From a virus: a stretch of 20,262 bases of DNA. The position numbers and the translations under genes are program-made. Where the stretch lies: IMG/VR virus record IMGVR_UViG_3300022747_000039, positions 1-20,262 of that record; one strand, given 5' to 3'. Below the pieces are notes generated by a model, which was not told the DNA's origin, searched no databases, and worked only from the letters and a program-made list of their open reading frames with translations. Numbering within the stretch: position 1 is the first letter of the stretch; every line of letters starts with the position of its first letter. Below are positions 7,999-19,771 of this stretch, piece by piece.

Positions 7999-8631
7999 AT
8001 GACGCGCTTTGCATCAACCGCGAACCAGTCGGAAGCGGCTAATTCCGCCATCCGCCTCTTCATCGCCTGCGACCTCGATTTCATCTCGGGGCACGTCCGC
8101 GCCCACGACGGCCTCGGCACGATCAATTTCGGCGGGTTCGACTATCTCGGGGTCGGCAGCTTCGGCGGCATTGAGATTGCCGAAGAGTCGATTTCAGTGA
8201 TCGCAAAGCCAGTCACCATCTCACTCTCTGGCGTAGATCCGGCGCTCGTCGCAACTGCCGTGACTGAGGCATATCAAGGCCGATCCGCCACGATATATCT
8301 CGGGATGATTAACGCGCAGACAAACGCGCTCATCGACACGCCCGAAACCCTCTGGGAAGGGCGCATGGACGTGATGACGGTAAGCCTCGGTCCTGAGACT
8401 GGCTCCATAAAGCTCAATTGTGAGCATCGACTGCGCCGCGAGCCACGGATCGCCCGATACACCGACGCGGACCAGCAGATCGCGCATCCGGGTGACAACT
8501 TCTTCAACCTCATCGGGAAAATCCCCGGCTTCAAGGGCACTTGGGGGACGGAGGGCGTCGCAAACGACGGCGGCGGAAGTCAGTCGCCTACCAGCAACTG
8601 GCAGAACTGGAATGGTGGCTATCGATGGTAA
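7999..8631 (+). CDS. Tail-tip protein, DUF2163-like
   Basis: This 210-residue protein sits where lambda L or DUF2163 hub proteins lie. It is beta-rich: VRAHDGLGTINFGGFDYLGVGSFGGI, then IAKPVTISLSGVDPALVATAV and YLGMINAQTNALIDTPETLWEGRMD. These resemble the hub/ring proteins that connect tube and tip. SIKLNCEHRLRREPRIARYTDADQQIAHPGDNFF is a recurring C-terminal block. A GGAG site precedes the ATG. The end overlaps the next ATG by seven bases. The family name is my best match by pattern; the position is more certain than the name. Confidence 0.75.
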   Translation: MTRFASTANQSEAANSAIRLFIACDLDFISGHVRAHDGLGTINFGGFDYLGVGSFGGIEIAEESISVIAKPVTISLSGVDPALVATAVTEAYQGRSATIYLGMINAQTNALIDTPETLWEGRMDVMTVSLGPETGSIKLNCEHRLRREPRIARYTDADQQIAHPGDNFFNLIGKIPGFKGTWGTEGVANDGGGSQSPTSNWQNWNGGYRW

Positions 8632-9023
8632 GGCGTCACGATTGGGCGGCGCTGATGTTCGAGACATCGATGGCGCATCAGGACTGTGATTTCGCGTGGG
8701 GCGTCAACGACTGCTGCCTCTTTGTCGCCCGAGTCATCGACGCCATGACGGACTCGGACCTAGAGGCGCAGATCCTTTCCCGCTACTCCGATCACGCCTC
8801 CGCGCTCGCGTTTATTGCCGAGCACGGCTCCCTCGAGTCTGCCGTGTCGCACTACCTCGGGACCGCTGTGCAAGGCAGCCCGATGCGGGGCGATGCAGTG
8901 TTGATCGACGGTGGCGAGGACTTTGCCATCGGTGTCTGTCTCGGTGGCGTGATCGCCGGCATGGGTCCGAACGGCCTGCGCCAGCTTCCGATGTCCGAAG
9001 TAATCAAGGTCTGGCCGGTATGA
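8625..9023 (+). CDS. DUF6950 family protein, NlpC/P60-like tail protein
   Basis: This 132-residue protein opens MVRRHDWAALMFE. The block FAWGVNDCCLFVARVIDAM matches the DUF6950 core, where the Cys after ND corresponds to the nucleophile of NlpC/P60-like papain folds. The segment RGDAVLIDGGEDFAIGVCLGGVIAGM follows and ends LPMSEVIKVWPV. It lies in the slot of lambda gpK, whose peptidase domain helps tail assembly or peptidoglycan passage. The expected catalytic His is not obvious, so activity is uncertain. The start at 8625 overlaps the previous gene by seven bases; a longer upstream reading to 8541 would run inside that gene and lacks family similarity. Confidence 0.82.
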   Translation: MVRRHDWAALMFETSMAHQDCDFAWGVNDCCLFVARVIDAMTDSDLEAQILSRYSDHASALAFIAEHGSLESAVSHYLGTAVQGSPMRGDAVLIDGGEDFAIGVCLGGVIAGMGPNGLRQLPMSEVIKVWPV

Positions 9024-12766: not shown

Positions 12767-13039
12767 ATGAATCCGCACACCTACGCCTTCAAGATCCTCT
12801 ACGCGCTCGACGTTTTCGTGGCGTCCCTGCTGTTTCGCGATGCCGCGATCACCATCAGCAGCTACTGCGGCCTCGCGCTCCGCTACAGCAGGCCCGGCGC
12901 TTTCGAGCGCGTGAAGCGCGGCCTAGGCCGATGCCTGAATTTCGTCGCGACAGATCACTGCGAAAAGGCGATCGGCGGCGACGCGCGCCGGGCGCATGAG
13001 GCCCTGCGCATCCTCGGATTCACCCACCCAAAGCCCTGA
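12767..13039 (+). CDS. Phage hypothetical protein, 90 aa
   Basis: I do not recognise this 90-residue protein. It has a moderately hydrophobic N-terminal part (ILYALDVFVASLLF, residues 9-22), then SYCGLALRYSRPGAFERVKRGLGRCLNFVATDHCEKAIGGDARRAHEALRI. Three Cys (34, 56, 65) and several Arg could suit a compact helical fold. It begins three bases after the DUF4376 stop and precedes the lysis genes, so it may belong to the lysis cassette or be an anti-holin-like accessory. That is inferred from place only. Confidence 0.7.
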   Translation: MNPHTYAFKILYALDVFVASLLFRDAAITISSYCGLALRYSRPGAFERVKRGLGRCLNFVATDHCEKAIGGDARRAHEALRILGFTHPKP

Positions 13040-13049
13040 AGGACCGGAA

Positions 13050-13382
13050 ATGGCATCACACCGACCCACGCAGACAGACCATCCCACGAGCAGCGGGGGC
13101 GACATGGCGAGGGAAACGCTTCTTTCGTGGGAGCGCGCAGCGGTCCTGATTTCCGTGCTCGGCCTGCTGTTCCAGGTCGGCGCGTGGATCTGGTGGGGCG
13201 GCCGGTTGAGTCAGCGCGTGGACATGCTCGAGGCGAGTCAGTCGCAGGAGCTGCAGATGCACACGAACTTCCGCGACGCGAACGCTCGGCAGGACGTCGA
13301 TATCGCGGTCATCAAGCAGCAGTACAGCGACATCCTCGCTCAGCTGAACCGCATCGCGCAGCACATCGAGCAGCGCCGATGA
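13050..13382 (+). CDS. Membrane protein with coiled coil, lysis cassette
   Basis: This 110-residue protein begins MASHRPTQTDHPTSSGGDMA. One membrane helix (about 29-50, ERAAVLISVLGLLFQVGAWIWW) is followed by a polar helical tail with coiled-coil character (RVDMLEASQSQELQMH, QDVDIAVIKQQYSDILAQLNRIAQHIEQ). The shape resembles small phage holin/antiholin or XhlA-like partners, but no family motif is decisive. An internal ATG at 13104 is an alternative start that would give a shorter N-terminus, similar to dual-start holins. The stop overlaps the DUF5675 ATG (ATGA), so the two are coupled. Confidence 0.75.
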   Translation: MASHRPTQTDHPTSSGGDMARETLLSWERAAVLISVLGLLFQVGAWIWWGGRLSQRVDMLEASQSQELQMHTNFRDANARQDVDIAVIKQQYSDILAQLNRIAQHIEQRR

Positions 13383-13852
13383 TCCTGACGCGGTGGCACT
13401 ACGGGCCGGACTGCACTCTCGGGTGGCTCGAGCACGATGGCTTGAAGCTCGCGACCATCGAACGGCCGTGGCTCCCGAACCCGGCAGGCATCGGCGGCGT
13501 GCCGAAGCAGTCCTGTATCCCCGACGGCAGTTACGCCGTCGAGAATTTCACCGGAACGCGGTTCACAGAAGTTTTCCGGCTGTCGAGCCCGCTGCTCGGG
13601 GTCTACCGCGACCAGCTGCCGCCGGGGCAGGACTGGGGCCGGCATTCGATTCTGATTCACGCCGGCAACTGCGTCACGGATGTCGTCGGCTGCATCGCCG
13701 TCGGCCTGCGCCATACCGTCATAGGCGGCTATCCCATGGTGCTGCAGTCCGCCGACGCGCTGCTGGCGCTGCGCGAGGCCCTGCGCACGACGCAGGCCGA
13801 CGTGCTGACCATCCAACCTTATCGAGGAACGCAGGAGGTATGCCGTGCTTGA
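13379..13852 (+). CDS. DUF5675 protein, candidate endolysin
   Basis: This 157-residue protein has the DUF5675 pattern: LGWLEHDGLKLATIERPWLPN, CIPDGSYAVENFTGT, FRLSSPLLGVYRD, then ILIHAGNCVTDVVGCIAVG. The His94...Gly104-Cys105 arrangement recalls the H...GC active site of YkuD-type L,D-transpeptidases, which would suit a peptidoglycan enzyme. That resemblance is my inference and the spacing differs from YkuD. It lies between two membrane protein genes and Rz/Rz1, and no other lysozyme, amidase or transglycosylase is visible in the cassette. The start is the ATG at 13379; the open frame further upstream lies inside the preceding gene. Confidence 0.85.
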   Translation: MILTRWHYGPDCTLGWLEHDGLKLATIERPWLPNPAGIGGVPKQSCIPDGSYAVENFTGTRFTEVFRLSSPLLGVYRDQLPPGQDWGRHSILIHAGNCVTDVVGCIAVGLRHTVIGGYPMVLQSADALLALREALRTTQADVLTIQPYRGTQEVCRA

Positions 13853-14264
13853 AGACATCCTGAAGTGGGCCGGCGCCGGTGATGCCGCCCTCAAGGCCAT
13901 GGGCCCGGTAATCACGATCCTTTTGGCGTGGATCGGCGGGGGTGCGATCGCCCAGTTCCTGAAATACCCCATTTCGCGTGCGGTTCAGGACGGCGCCGCC
14001 TTCGACTGGACCGTTCGCACCGTCGCCGTACTGGCGGCTTTCGGCTTCGCGCATGTCCTGTCCGGCTCCGTCACGACGCCGCTCGAGGTCGTCGCGGCTG
14101 TCACCCAGCCCGTCGCCTACTGGGCCAGCCTCCGGGTCATCCGGCGATTCTGGCCGTGGATGGAGGTCTACAGTGCGGTCGGAAGCTGCACGCCCCCTGC
14201 GACCGCCTATGCGGCCGCAGAGCAGCGCCGCGCCGACCAGTCAGGCGAGGGCAGCGGGGTATGA
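13845..14264 (+). CDS. Holin-like membrane protein
   Basis: This 139-residue protein has three likely membrane helices: about 19-39 (MGPVITILLAWIGGGAIAQFL), 57-75 (TVRTVAVLAAFGFAHVLSG) and 79-98 (PLEVVAAVTQPVAYWASLRV). It has a charged C-terminal tail (EQRRADQSGEGSGV). Size, three helices and place just before Rz fit a class I holin. The start is GTG at 13845 with AGGAGG at 13833-13838; the nearer ATG at 13840 is in another frame and stops after seven codons. It overlaps DUF5675 by eight bases and Rz by four. Confidence 0.75.
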   Translation: MLEDILKWAGAGDAALKAMGPVITILLAWIGGGAIAQFLKYPISRAVQDGAAFDWTVRTVAVLAAFGFAHVLSGSVTTPLEVVAAVTQPVAYWASLRVIRRFWPWMEVYSAVGSCTPPATAYAAAEQRRADQSGEGSGV

Positions 14265-14716
14265 GCCTCGACTACATCCGCGCCGGCATCGCCGCCGTCG
14301 CTGTCGCCCTCGTGCTGGCTATCGGCTGGGTCGTCCTGTCCTGGCGGGACGATGCCCGCCAGCTGGAGGGCCTGCGCCAGCAGCTGCAGGACGAAAGGGC
14401 GGCCAGATCCCTCGAAATCGAACAAGCGGCCACGGCCGGCAGGAACTACCACGATGAACTGGAAACTCTCCGCGCTCGCCCTGCCGTTGGCCCTGTGCGC
14501 CTGTGCAGTGCAGCCCCAGCGGCTCCCACGGGCGACGCCGCCAGCAGAGCTGATGATCCCCCCGCCACCGCCGGGGTGGGCCTCCAAGGCACTCAGGGAG
14601 GCCGTGACATCGGGCCAGACCTCGACGCCCTAGCGGCCCGGTGCGACGCGCTGACGGCGCAGCTGCGCGCCCTGCAGGGGTGGGAGCGTGCAATTCAGGA
14701 CGAACCCGCCAGATAG
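14261..14716 (+). CDS. i-spanin (Rz-like)
   Basis: This 151-residue protein has a single N-terminal membrane helix (about 7-27, RAGIAAVAVALVLAIGWVVL) followed by a long periplasmic part. That part has heptad-like stretches (DDARQLEGLRQQLQDERAAR and LDALAARCDALTAQLRALQG) around a Pro/Ala-rich middle. This is the form of the inner membrane spanin that, with Rz1, fuses inner and outer membranes in the last step of lysis. The ATG at 14261 overlaps the holin-like stop (ATGA). A complete Rz1 gene lies inside it in another frame, which strongly supports the call. Confidence 0.88.
   Translation: MSLDYIRAGIAAVAVALVLAIGWVVLSWRDDARQLEGLRQQLQDERAARSLEIEQAATAGRNYHDELETLRARPAVGPVRLCSAAPAAPTGDAASRADDPPATAGVGLQGTQGGRDIGPDLDALAARCDALTAQLRALQGWERAIQDEPAR
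14454..14633 (+). CDS. o-spanin lipoprotein (Rz1-like), nested in Rz
   Basis: This 59-residue lipoprotein is encoded wholly inside Rz in the +1 frame. The signal peptide MNWKLSALALPLALCACAVQ ends in a lipobox LCAC with Cys17 as the likely lipidated residue. The mature part is short and proline-rich (PPAELMIPPPPPGW), as in Rz1 proteins. It should be an outer membrane lipoprotein that pairs with the Rz C-terminus. The frame is open upstream to 14352, but only the ATG at 14454 gives a signal peptide. Confidence 0.9.
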   Translation: MNWKLSALALPLALCACAVQPQRLPRATPPAELMIPPPPPGWASKALREAVTSGQTSTP

Positions 14717-14976: not shown

Positions 14977-15966
14977 CTAGGGTTTTTTGCTGCTGTCAAT
15001 TGACTGTCCAAAACTCGGGCCTTCCACGACCGGCTCTTCCTTGTCGCGAAGGTATCGTACCGTCTGCGCAGCGCCCGAGTGACCGAGCAGCGCGGTGGCG
15101 TTCAGGCCCTGCCGTTTCGCCTCGGTTGCAGCCAGCGCGCGCAGGTCGTGCAGGTGCGCATCCTTAACCCCTGCCGCCGTGCAGGCGCTGTCCCACTGCA
15201 GTTTCACCGACCGGTAATCCGGGGCCTTCCCGCGGCGGTTGTGGAGGAGCGTCAGGGCGACGATGTTCTGGTGCAGTTTCTTGGCGCGATCCACCGCGTC
15301 CTTGAGCTCAGGCGACCACGCGACGGTCAGCTTGCTGCCGGTCTTCTGCTGCTCGAACCGGATGCCTGAGTCGGTCAGATTCGCCCTGCGGATCGCCAGC
15401 ACGTCGCCGATTCGCTGCCCGGTCAGCCGGCACAAGTCCATGATGACCTGCAGCCTGGGCGCCGCCTGTTCGCGGATGGCGTCGAACTCCTCGCGGGTGA
15501 TGAGGCGCTTTCGCTTCGCTTCCCTGAACCCCTTGAGGCCGACGGCCGGGTTTTCGTCCACGAGCTGCTGCTCGACGGCGTAGTCGAACACCTGGCGCAG
15601 GAGCGAGAGGCAGCGGTTCGCCATGTTCGGCGTTCCGATGAGCGAGGCCTTGAACTGGGCGACGTGTTTCTGCCGCACCTGCTGGGGGCTGAACTCGTAG
15701 AAGGCGCGCGAGAGCTTAGTCGCGGCGACTCGGTACTGCTTGGCGGTGCTCTTCGCCACACGCCCGCAGACCGCATCCAGGGCGGTTTCGATCAGTTCCG
15801 GCATCGATCCCTTCGGGGCGTCGATCGTGGCCGCGTAGGCGGTCAGAGCGTCCCGCAGGTTGTCTGACAGCCGGGTCCACTTTCCACGGCGCACCAGGTA
15901 ATAGGCCCCGTGCCGGTGGTAGACCCCGGCCGGCAGGTGGCGGTCCTTTTTGCGGGGCCTGTTCAT
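14977..15966 (-). CDS. int: Tyrosine recombinase integrase
   Basis: This 329-residue phage integrase catalyses site-specific recombination between attP and the host attB. An N-terminal beta segment (HLPAGVYHRHGAYYLVRRGKW, about 10-30) probably binds arm sites. It is followed by a SAM-like core-binding domain (about 54-145). The catalytic domain has all signature residues: Arg185 (TGQRIGD), Lys208 (QQKTGSK), His273-x-x-Arg276 (HDLRA), His296 (LLGHSGAAQT) and Tyr305 (VRYLRD). The enzyme therefore looks active. Its ATG overlaps the stop of the DUF4224 gene by four bases, so it is the last gene of the leftward operon. Confidence 0.96.
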   Translation of the reverse strand: MNRPRKKDRHLPAGVYHRHGAYYLVRRGKWTRLSDNLRDALTAYAATIDAPKGSMPELIETALDAVCGRVAKSTAKQYRVAATKLSRAFYEFSPQQVRQKHVAQFKASLIGTPNMANRCLSLLRQVFDYAVEQQLVDENPAVGLKGFREAKRKRLITREEFDAIREQAAPRLQVIMDLCRLTGQRIGDVLAIRRANLTDSGIRFEQQKTGSKLTVAWSPELKDAVDRAKKLHQNIVALTLLHNRRGKAPDYRSVKLQWDSACTAAGVKDAHLHDLRALAATEAKRQGLNATALLGHSGAAQTVRYLRDKEEPVVEGPSFGQSIDSSKKP

Positions 15967-18660: not shown

Positions 18661-18902
18661 AGCTTCACCCCCCAGATCTTCTTCCGCCCCTGCCAGCACT
18701 CGACCCACATGCGCTCGCCATGCGCCACCGCGAGCGTTCCGTGCCGGGCGTCGCACTGCATCTGCAGCGCGACTTCCTCCAGCGAGGGATGCGGGACCAG
18801 TTCATCCGGCATATCGAACGCGTCCACGATCATGGCTACAGTCGCAATCAGGATTGCGATGGCGATGATCAGGCCGAGGTAGCTGTAGCGTTGATGGCTC
18901 AT
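18657..18902 (-). CDS. Single-span membrane protein, 81 aa
   Basis: The protein begins MSHQRYSYLGLIIAIAILIA. One membrane helix spans about residues 8-28 (YLGLIIAIAILIATVAMIVDAF), followed by a soluble part with MQCDARHGTLAVAHGERMWVECW. The two Cys of the soluble part (about 51 and 70) could form a disulfide if it faces the periplasm. The ATG at 18902 is fused to the methyltransferase stop (ATGA). Function unknown. Confidence 0.74.
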   Translation of the reverse strand: MSHQRYSYLGLIIAIAILIATVAMIVDAFDMPDELVPHPSLEEVALQMQCDARHGTLAVAHGERMWVECWQGRKKIWGVKL

Positions 18903-19771
18903 GCTGCGAACAGATCGGACTGACCCGCTGCCCCCTTCAGGTTTTCGCAGGCCTGTTTCCAATAAGCCTCCTTCAGCTCAACGCCGATAAACTTCCTTCC
19001 GGCTTTGAGAGACTGATACCCCTCGCTTCCAATTCCCATAAAGGGCGATAAAACCGTATCGCCGGGGTTTGACCACATCACGAGCGCACGCTCGATAAGG
19101 TCTAGTTGCAACGGGCAGAGATGCTTCTCATCCTTTTCGCTTCTTGCGACCTTCACATTCAGGACATTCGTCTGCTTGATGTCCATCCAGACAGGGCTGG
19201 CCCATTGCTGCCACTGCTCCACCGGGAACTCTGATGCGTCGTGTGTGATCGGCTCGGCATTCTCTCCGGGCTTTACGAACGTAATCAGGTAGTCAGGCAT
19301 TCCGCCCCGAGACTTGGCGCTGTCATTTCGAAGCTGCTTGTACAACAGGCCGACATGCTTCGTGCGGGTCATCTCCACAACTGGGCATTTCCAGATCGTT
19401 CGGCGGCTGTGCATGATCCAGCCGGCTTCCTGATGGATGCGGATGATGTCGCCGGAGAAGTCCTTGATCCCAACCGCGCCGTCCTTCCATTTCGTCATGG
19501 GAAGGTCGCTGCAATGCACCGCAGTCAGCCGGCCAGGCTTGGTAATGCGAAACTTCTCCCGGACCAGATAGGCGTAATGCTCGGCAAACTCGCCGTCGCT
19601 GGAGCTATTTCCCATGTCGGCGGCAGAATCGCTGTAAACAAACAGCGAGCTGAAGGGTGGGGAATAAACGCTAAAGTCGATGCAATTATCGGGCAGCTGG
19701 CTGGTGACGCTTACGCAGTCGCCGTGATATGCAACCCAAGTATCGCCAGTCTTTTGATTCAGGCAATCCAT
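18899..19771 (-). CDS. DNA methyltransferase, N4/N6 type (beta order)
   Basis: This 290-residue amino-methyltransferase of the PF01555 type would transfer a methyl group from SAM to adenine N6 or cytosine N4. The catalytic motif IV is SPPF (37-40, in CIDFSVYSPPFSSLF) near the N-terminus. The SAM-binding motif I, FMGIGSEG (244-251), and VELKEAYW lie near the C-terminus, giving the beta-class order. SPP(Y/F) is most often seen in N4-cytosine enzymes, but adenine cannot be excluded. No restriction nuclease is visible nearby, so it is probably a solitary phage enzyme for restriction evasion. It overlaps the helicase end by 13 bases. Confidence 0.9.
   Translation of the reverse strand: MDCLNQKTGDTWVAYHGDCVSVTSQLPDNCIDFSVYSPPFSSLFVYSDSAADMGNSSSDGEFAEHYAYLVREKFRITKPGRLTAVHCSDLPMTKWKDGAVGIKDFSGDIIRIHQEAGWIMHSRRTIWKCPVVEMTRTKHVGLLYKQLRNDSAKSRGGMPDYLITFVKPGENAEPITHDASEFPVEQWQQWASPVWMDIKQTNVLNVKVARSEKDEKHLCPLQLDLIERALVMWSNPGDTVLSPFMGIGSEGYQSLKAGRKFIGVELKEAYWKQACENLKGAAGQSDLFAA

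What the first reader, a model, noticed from the sequence alone, without database searches (positions are those of the whole stretch)
13379..13852. DUF5675 as the only endolysin candidate, with an L,D-transpeptidase-like H...GC motif
A full Gram-negative lysis cassette (membrane proteins, Rz, Rz1) surrounds this gene, but no known muralytic enzyme is present. IHAGN...VVGCIAVG (His94, Cys105) recalls the YkuD active site. If it cuts or exchanges peptidoglycan crosslinks, it would be an unusual type of phage lysin.
Basis: partly seen in the sequence, partly recalled or inferred. Interest (0 to 1): 0.65.

Follow-up and report, generated by a model that had tools for sequence, protein, structure and literature searches.

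The report
Cysteine-type phage endolysin replacing lysozyme (DUF5675)
A small phage protein family of unknown function sits where phages keep the enzyme that breaks the host cell wall, has displaced ordinary lysozymes there in at least two phage lineages, and carries a cysteine-histidine active site like that of bacterial wall cross-linking enzymes, so it is very probably an overlooked class of phage lysis enzyme.

Summary
Window 13379-13852 encodes a DUF5675 protein (PF18925, E 1e-17) with His94 and Cys105 as stated, between a 1-TM protein and a holin-like protein, followed by nested Rz/Rz1. No known muralytic domain was found in the searches run on the window, but the window is a 20-kb fragment. 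(1) Vibrio phages martha and 1.028.O are about 97-98% identical in DNA around the slot; DUF5675 in one replaces a GH108 muramidase in the other. In HP1-like Vibrio phages a DUF5675-holin cassette replaces holin plus phage lysozyme. (2) Of 82 DUF5675 proteins, 33 weakly match Pfam Tlde1 and 11 weakly match YkuD; His94, Asn97, Gly104 and Cys105 are invariant in 23 divergent sequences. (3) DUF5675 also forms the C-terminal tip of an Rhs protein, like a toxin domain. Against: no significant Foldseek match to solved L,D-transpeptidases, the His of SHGC is missing, Pfam cut-offs for YkuD and Tlde1 are not met, and no activity was measured. Best reading: a holin-dependent endolysin with a divergent YkuD/Tlde1-type Cys-His site, cutting stem peptides or crosslinks. 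Endolysin role about 0.88; Cys-His chemistry about 0.75; exact bond uncertain.

The parts
13379..13852 (+). DUF5675 protein, proposed endolysin (157 aa)
   Evidence: PF18925 E 1.1e-17; phrog_1501; AF2 model mean pLDDT 93.6, pTM 0.88
13655..13705 (+). active-site motif I93-H94-A-G-N97...D101-x-x-G104-C105-I-A-V-G109; His94 codon 13658-13660, Cys105 codon 13691-13693
   Evidence: H94, N97, G104, C105 invariant in 23 divergent sequences, most of them not chosen by this motif
12996..13382 (+). 1-TM protein with cytoplasmic coiled-coil-like tail, stop overlaps the DUF5675 start (probable start 13104); holin- or releasin-like candidate
   Evidence: TM segment by hydropathy; phrog_19656 E 7e-4, unknown
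13845..14264 (+). small membrane protein, holin candidate, overlaps the end of the DUF5675 gene by 8 bases
   Evidence: one clear hydrophobic segment by hydropathy; no Pfam or PHROG family
14261..14716 (+). Rz-like inner-membrane spanin
   Evidence: phrog_2466 E 3.8e-5; N-terminal TM
14454..14633 (+). Rz1-like outer-membrane lipoprotein spanin, nested in Rz in another frame
   Evidence: phrog_1267 E 0.007; lipobox LCAC, proline-rich

Best explanation
The DUF5675 protein is the endolysin of this phage. It is a small soluble one-domain enzyme without signal peptide or SAR segment, so it should need a holin to reach the periplasm (inferred). There a cysteine nucleophile (Cys105), activated by His94 in a divergent YkuD/Tlde1-type domain, attacks the peptide stems of peptidoglycan. 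The likeliest target is the carbonyl of meso-DAP at position 3 (the L,D bond to D-Ala4): hydrolysis, or exchange with a free D-amino acid, would open 4-3 crosslinks and trim stems, after which Rz/Rz1 disrupt the outer membrane. Shown computationally: slot replacement, cassette position, invariant His/Cys, weak collinear sequence match to Tlde1/YkuD. Inferred: enzymatic activity, acyl-enzyme chemistry, exact bond.
For: Slot replacement 1: martha 12B12 and Vibrio phage 1.028.O flanks are 96-99% identical in DNA in the blocks around the slot; homology stops just inside the gene after Mor and resumes at L005 10149, two bases after the DUF5675 stop; the same slot in 1.028.O holds a GH108 muramidase with PG_binding_3, in MuM16-2 a GH108 lysozyme, in Mu gp22 endolysin (function from PMC9239132). 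Replacement 2: HP1-like PE002 against 1.202.O, 80-86% identical flanks; DUF5675 + GTA_holin_3TM replace HP1 holin + Phage_lysozyme (E 9e-28) + TM protein; HP1 has hol-lys-Rz there. GH108, Phage_lysozyme and YkuD absent from martha, ZX4290, PE002; no known lysin among the 25 of 38 families shown for 42 martha proteins. Microvirus of 4.9 kb with DUF5675 as one of six genes, itself hit by YkuD at E 8e-4. Close relative L155: TM protein - DUF5675 - Rz/Rz1. Adjacent genes enriched for small membrane proteins, 48% and 33% against 9% (p 5e-18, 7e-9), and including known holins. 33 of 82 members match Tlde1_dom (best 1.3e-4), 11 match YkuD (best 0.0023), the next most frequent after DUF5675 itself; L031 aligns over YkuD 32-126/146, L101 over Tlde1 10-100/120. 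H94, N97, G104, C105 invariant. DUF5675 as C-terminal tip of an Rhs protein.
Against: Foldseek found no significant PDB match for either model; LdtMt1/LdtMt2 appear among non-significant hits for L031 at TM about 0.3. HHalign to a 5-sequence YkuD profile aligned H and C correctly but at probability 8%. The His of SHGC is missing (VVGC here). The window protein itself does not match YkuD or Tlde1 at E 1. At least one neighbour of a DUF5675 gene is a known cell-wall hydrolase (PF07486), so it is not everywhere the sole lysin. In large Vibrio phages (such as 1.187.O) it lies outside an obvious lysis cassette. The genome-wide lysin comparison was underpowered (0/40 against 4/40).
Confidence: 0.75

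Rival explanations
1. DUF5675 is the endolysin, but its chemistry is not L,D-transpeptidase-like: the HxGN...GC site belongs to another cysteine hydrolase fold (for instance an amidase or D,L-endopeptidase) that resembles YkuD by convergence, perhaps using the invariant Glu28 and Asn97.
For: No significant fold match to YkuD structures; SHGC histidine absent; Glu28, Gly50 and Tyr52 are invariant in the family and Glu28 has no counterpart that I could identify in YkuD.
Against: Recurrent matches to Tlde1 and YkuD rather than any other enzyme family, collinear over most of the domain; order of elements (three strands, I-P-x-G-x-Y, His strand, GC, helix, strand) agrees with what I know of YkuD domains.
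Confidence: 0.13
2. DUF5675 is an accessory lysis or wall-modifying protein rather than the essential endolysin; the true endolysin is unrecognised or encoded outside the window.
For: Window is a 20-kb fragment; a DUF6950 tail protein could be muralytic; one DUF5675 neighbour is a known hydrolase.
Against: Replacement of GH108 and of Phage_lysozyme at two lysis slots, with neither family elsewhere in the DUF5675 phage genomes.
Confidence: 0.09
3. DUF5675 is a superinfection-exclusion or lysogenic-conversion gene that happens to sit near lysis genes.
For: Sporadic distribution in bacterial genomes (11 of 369); found in large phages away from holins.
Against: In martha it lies in the late lysis slot after the late activator, and it replaces the lysozyme with the downstream genes unchanged at 97% identity.
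Confidence: 0.03

Closest known systems
YkuD L,D-transpeptidases (PF03734; E. coli LdtB, LdtMt2)
   Same: Order of elements, His before Gly-Cys, N-terminal strands and I-P-x-G-x-Y corresponding to T-P-x-G-x-F; best member E 0.0023 over most of the domain
   Different: His-to-Cys distance 11 instead of about 16-18, no S-H-G-C, loop between Cys and helix longer by a hairpin, no signal peptide or PG-binding domain, below Pfam cut-off, no significant Foldseek match
Tlde1 T6SS effectors (PF10908; Tlde1a, LD-carboxypeptidase/transpeptidase, PMC9638812)
   Same: Compact L,D-transpeptidase-type toxin domain; His121-Cys131 distance 10, close to 11 here; Arg115-His121 distance 6, equal to Arg88-His94 here (residue numbers); 33 of 82 DUF5675 proteins match weakly
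   Different: Tlde1 keeps SHGC and is injected by a T6SS; DUF5675 is mainly a phage protein; below the Pfam cut-off
Phage endolysins of the lysis slot (GH108, Phage_lysozyme GH24, Mu gp22, HP1 lys)
   Same: Same position in the lysis cassette; direct replacement in closely related phages
   Different: GH108 and GH24 lysozymes are glycosidases; DUF5675 is predicted to be a cysteine enzyme acting on peptides
YkuD-domain phage lytic proteins in PhaLP (PMC8310338)
   Same: A YkuD category of 10 proteins is already listed among phage lytic domains
   Different: PF18925 DUF5675 did not appear in the domain-table passage read, and the family looks far more common in phage contigs

Membership tests
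DUF5675 (PF18925) | Pfam gathering score | tested here: met
   64.4 bits against 26.7
YkuD L,D-transpeptidase (PF03734) | Pfam gathering score | tested here: not met
   No match for the window protein; best family member seen 19.0 against 23.4 bits
YkuD L,D-transpeptidase (PF03734) | Catalytic Cys preceded by catalytic His in the motif | tested here: met
   His94 and Cys105 invariant in 23 sequences and aligned with the YkuD His and Cys by hhalign
YkuD L,D-transpeptidase (PF03734) | S/T-H-G-C motif | tested here: not met
   V-V-G-C here; the HGC His is replaced across the family
YkuD L,D-transpeptidase (PF03734) | YkuD fold | tested here: inconclusive
   Confident models, but no significant Foldseek match; LdtMt1/2 at TM about 0.3 among non-significant hits
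YkuD L,D-transpeptidase (PF03734) | L,D-transpeptidase, carboxypeptidase or endopeptidase activity | not testable with these tools
   Needs biochemistry
Tlde1 domain (PF10908) | Pfam gathering score | tested here: not met
   33 of 82 members match at E up to 1, best 1.3e-4; among ten scanned singly the best score was 14.2 bits against 30.1
Phage endolysin (functional class) | Position in a lysis cassette next to holin and spanins | tested here: met
   Window 12996-14716; close relatives L153, L154, L155
Phage endolysin (functional class) | Takes the place of a known endolysin in related phages | tested here: met
   For family members: martha against 1.028.O and PE002 against 1.202.O; not tested for the window's own lineage
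Phage endolysin (functional class) | Peptidoglycan cleavage and requirement for lysis | not testable with these tools
   Experiment needed

The most novel reading that the evidence does not exclude
DUF5675 defines an unrecognised class of phage endolysin: a minimal cysteine enzyme of L,D-transpeptidase type that opens peptidoglycan at meso-DAP rather than cutting glycans. It has repeatedly displaced lysozymes in unrelated phages, may serve even a microvirus, and also forms the toxin tip of Rhs proteins.
Probability: 0.6. Interest if true: 0.78.

Novelty: new variant of a known kind. Interest (0 to 1): 0.62.

Why it matters
It links phage lysins with Rhs and T6SS-type wall toxins, would explain how some phages without a recognised lysozyme lyse their hosts, and the near-identical phage pair martha / 1.028.O offers a ready natural experiment.

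Tried and rejected
DNA-level search of the cassette in phages: no match. phmmer of the window protein and hmmsearch of A2 against PDB: nothing relevant. Foldseek on two models: not significant. The search for related loci with the diverse alignment A1 failed, so a DNA pattern was used; that pattern imposes I93, H94, G96, N97, D101, G104, C105 and I106 on A2, so conservation was judged on A1 and A8 instead. Mutual exclusion with known lysins across contigs: 0/40 DUF5675 contigs with Phage_lysozyme or Amidase_2 against 4/40 random contigs, underpowered; no M15 in either set. PHROG scan of neighbours was dominated by tail and HNH families with one holin family. An attempt to fetch Ralstonia phage RP31, whose 1251-aa BFVD segment carries DUF5675, failed. 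Literature: DUF5675 is in two open papers only, neither assigning it a lysis role; PF18925 in none.

Full report
Observation. The ORF at 13379-13852 is real, 157 aa, and a secure member of Pfam DUF5675. Upstream ends a 1-TM protein; downstream lie a holin-like protein and nested Rz/Rz1 genes, the latter only weakly recognised. The window is a 20,262-bp virus fragment, so absence of a lysozyme from it is weak evidence on its own; I therefore looked at relatives with complete or near-complete genomes.

Natural gene replacement. In the Mu-like Vibrio phage martha 12B12 (L005) DUF5675 is the second gene after the Mor-type late activator and is followed by a conserved small gene, a membrane protein, a DksA-type zinc finger, DUF2730 and terminase genes. 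Vibrio phage 1.028.O has a Mor protein 98.6% identical and the same order. BLASTN puts the blocks around the slot at 96-99% identity (97.3% over 1367 bases downstream). The two genomes part just inside the gene after Mor and rejoin two bases after the DUF5675 stop codon; in 1.028.O the corresponding gene is a GH108 muramidase with a PG_binding_3 domain. MuM16-2 has a GH108 lysozyme there and Mu its endolysin gp22, shown experimentally to be the lysis enzyme (PMC9239132). A short secreted protein upstream of the lysin is exchanged with it. A second replacement is seen in HP1-like Vibrio phages: PE002 (L015) carries DUF5675 and a GTA-type holin exactly where 1.202.O (L138) carries an HP1 holin, a phage lysozyme (E 9e-28) and a TM protein, between flanks 80-86% identical; HP1 itself has hol-lys-Rz there. 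GH108, Phage_lysozyme and YkuD are absent from martha, ZX4290, PE002 and the window, and none of the 25 families shown (of 38) for 42 martha proteins is a known lysin.

Context elsewhere. The family occurs in a 4.9-kb microvirus as one of six genes. In the closest cellular relatives the order is TM protein - DUF5675 - Rz/Rz1 (L155), 1-TM - DUF5675 - TM - spanin-like (L153), and 1-TM - DUF5675 - TM - lipoprotein (L154) (L153 and L154 read by eye). Across the IMG/VR loci the adjacent gene is a small membrane protein in 48% (upstream) and 33% (downstream) of cases, against 9% in the background (Fisher p 5e-18 and 7e-9; mechanical ORF calling, so approximate). Recognised holin families occur among the neighbours. 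The comparison of known-lysin content between DUF5675 contigs and random contigs pointed the same way but was underpowered.

Active site and relationship. In 23 divergent sequences, nearly all of them not selected by the motif, the invariant residues are Glu28, Gly50, Tyr52, His94, Asn97, Gly104 and Cys105. In a Pfam scan of 82 members, 33 match Tlde1_dom (best E 1.3e-4) and 11 match YkuD (best E 0.0023); the next family has five. These are weak single scores taken from many members, but they recur for the same two families, which both comprise L,D-transpeptidase-type enzymes, and the longest are collinear over most of the domain. Profile-profile comparison aligned the His and the Cys of the two families but with low probability. 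Both AlphaFold models are confident (pLDDT 93.6 and 94.6), yet Foldseek found no significant solved structure; M. tuberculosis LdtMt1 and LdtMt2 appear among the non-significant hits of the second model with the highest probabilities and TM scores in that list, about 0.3. The order of elements fits a YkuD core, with a shorter His-Cys loop and an added hairpin before the helix (my reading). The SHGC histidine is missing; in Tlde1a the corresponding H129A mutant keeps D-amino-acid exchange but loses much of the other activities (PMC9638812), so its absence is compatible with activity.

Independent functional hint. In one of 369 genomes sampled, DUF5675 is the C-terminal domain of an Rhs-repeat protein directly after the conserved core end, the position of toxin domains in Rhs proteins (general knowledge). 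That fits a domain that damages a bacterial target, as Tlde1 does.

Mechanism. I propose a holin-released endolysin whose Cys105 thiolate, activated by His94, forms an acyl-enzyme with meso-DAP3 and resolves it with water or a D-amino acid. This would sever 4-3 crosslinks on the donor side and trim tetrapeptides. YkuD enzymes with carboxypeptidase and endopeptidase activity are known (PMC12729407). The bond specificity is inference.

Prior knowledge. Some crAss-like phage records already carry names such as transpeptidase or L,D-carboxypeptidase/transpeptidase for family members, and PhaLP lists YkuD as a rare lytic domain. I found no paper giving DUF5675 a lysis role, though only open-access papers could be searched. 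It is therefore filed as a new variant of a known kind.

Noticed in passing
L269:328-1890 (genome G294): Rhs-repeat protein (TEN_YD-shell, RHS_repeat) whose C-terminal variable domain is DUF5675, with the His/Asn/Gly/Cys residues conserved; apparently an interbacterial toxin tip.
   Followed up: partly
L264:601-1890: 430-aa bacterial protein with N-terminal DUF5675 and a C-terminal region of about 290 aa without Pfam match.
   Followed up: no
L005:9181-9639 and L136:5434-5886: In martha and 1.028.O a small protein with a signal-peptide-like start, just upstream of the lysin gene, is exchanged together with it; possible lysin partner or moron.
   Followed up: partly
L139:4199-4696 (Vibrio phage yong1 gp35): Gene in the HP1-like lysis slot annotated as RNA polymerase subunit alpha has a weak SLT transglycosylase match (E 0.035); probably a third kind of lysin in this slot and a misannotation.
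   Followed up: partly
window 8595-9023: DUF6950 protein just before the J-like tail protein, with a DCC motif resembling NlpC/P60; possible tail-tip peptidase.
   Followed up: no
window 12996-13382: 1-TM protein with a long tail, similar in topology to the Mu gp25 (DUF2730) releasin; may regulate lysis.
   Followed up: no
window 14977-15966 (-) and 18899-19771 (-): Apparent tyrosine integrase right after the lysis cassette and an apparent DNA methyltransferase further on, by reading the translations; suggests a temperate phage.
   Followed up: no
L004:3009-3419: Bee-associated microvirus of 4.9 kb encodes DUF5675, a possible lysis enzyme in a tiny ssDNA phage.
   Followed up: partly
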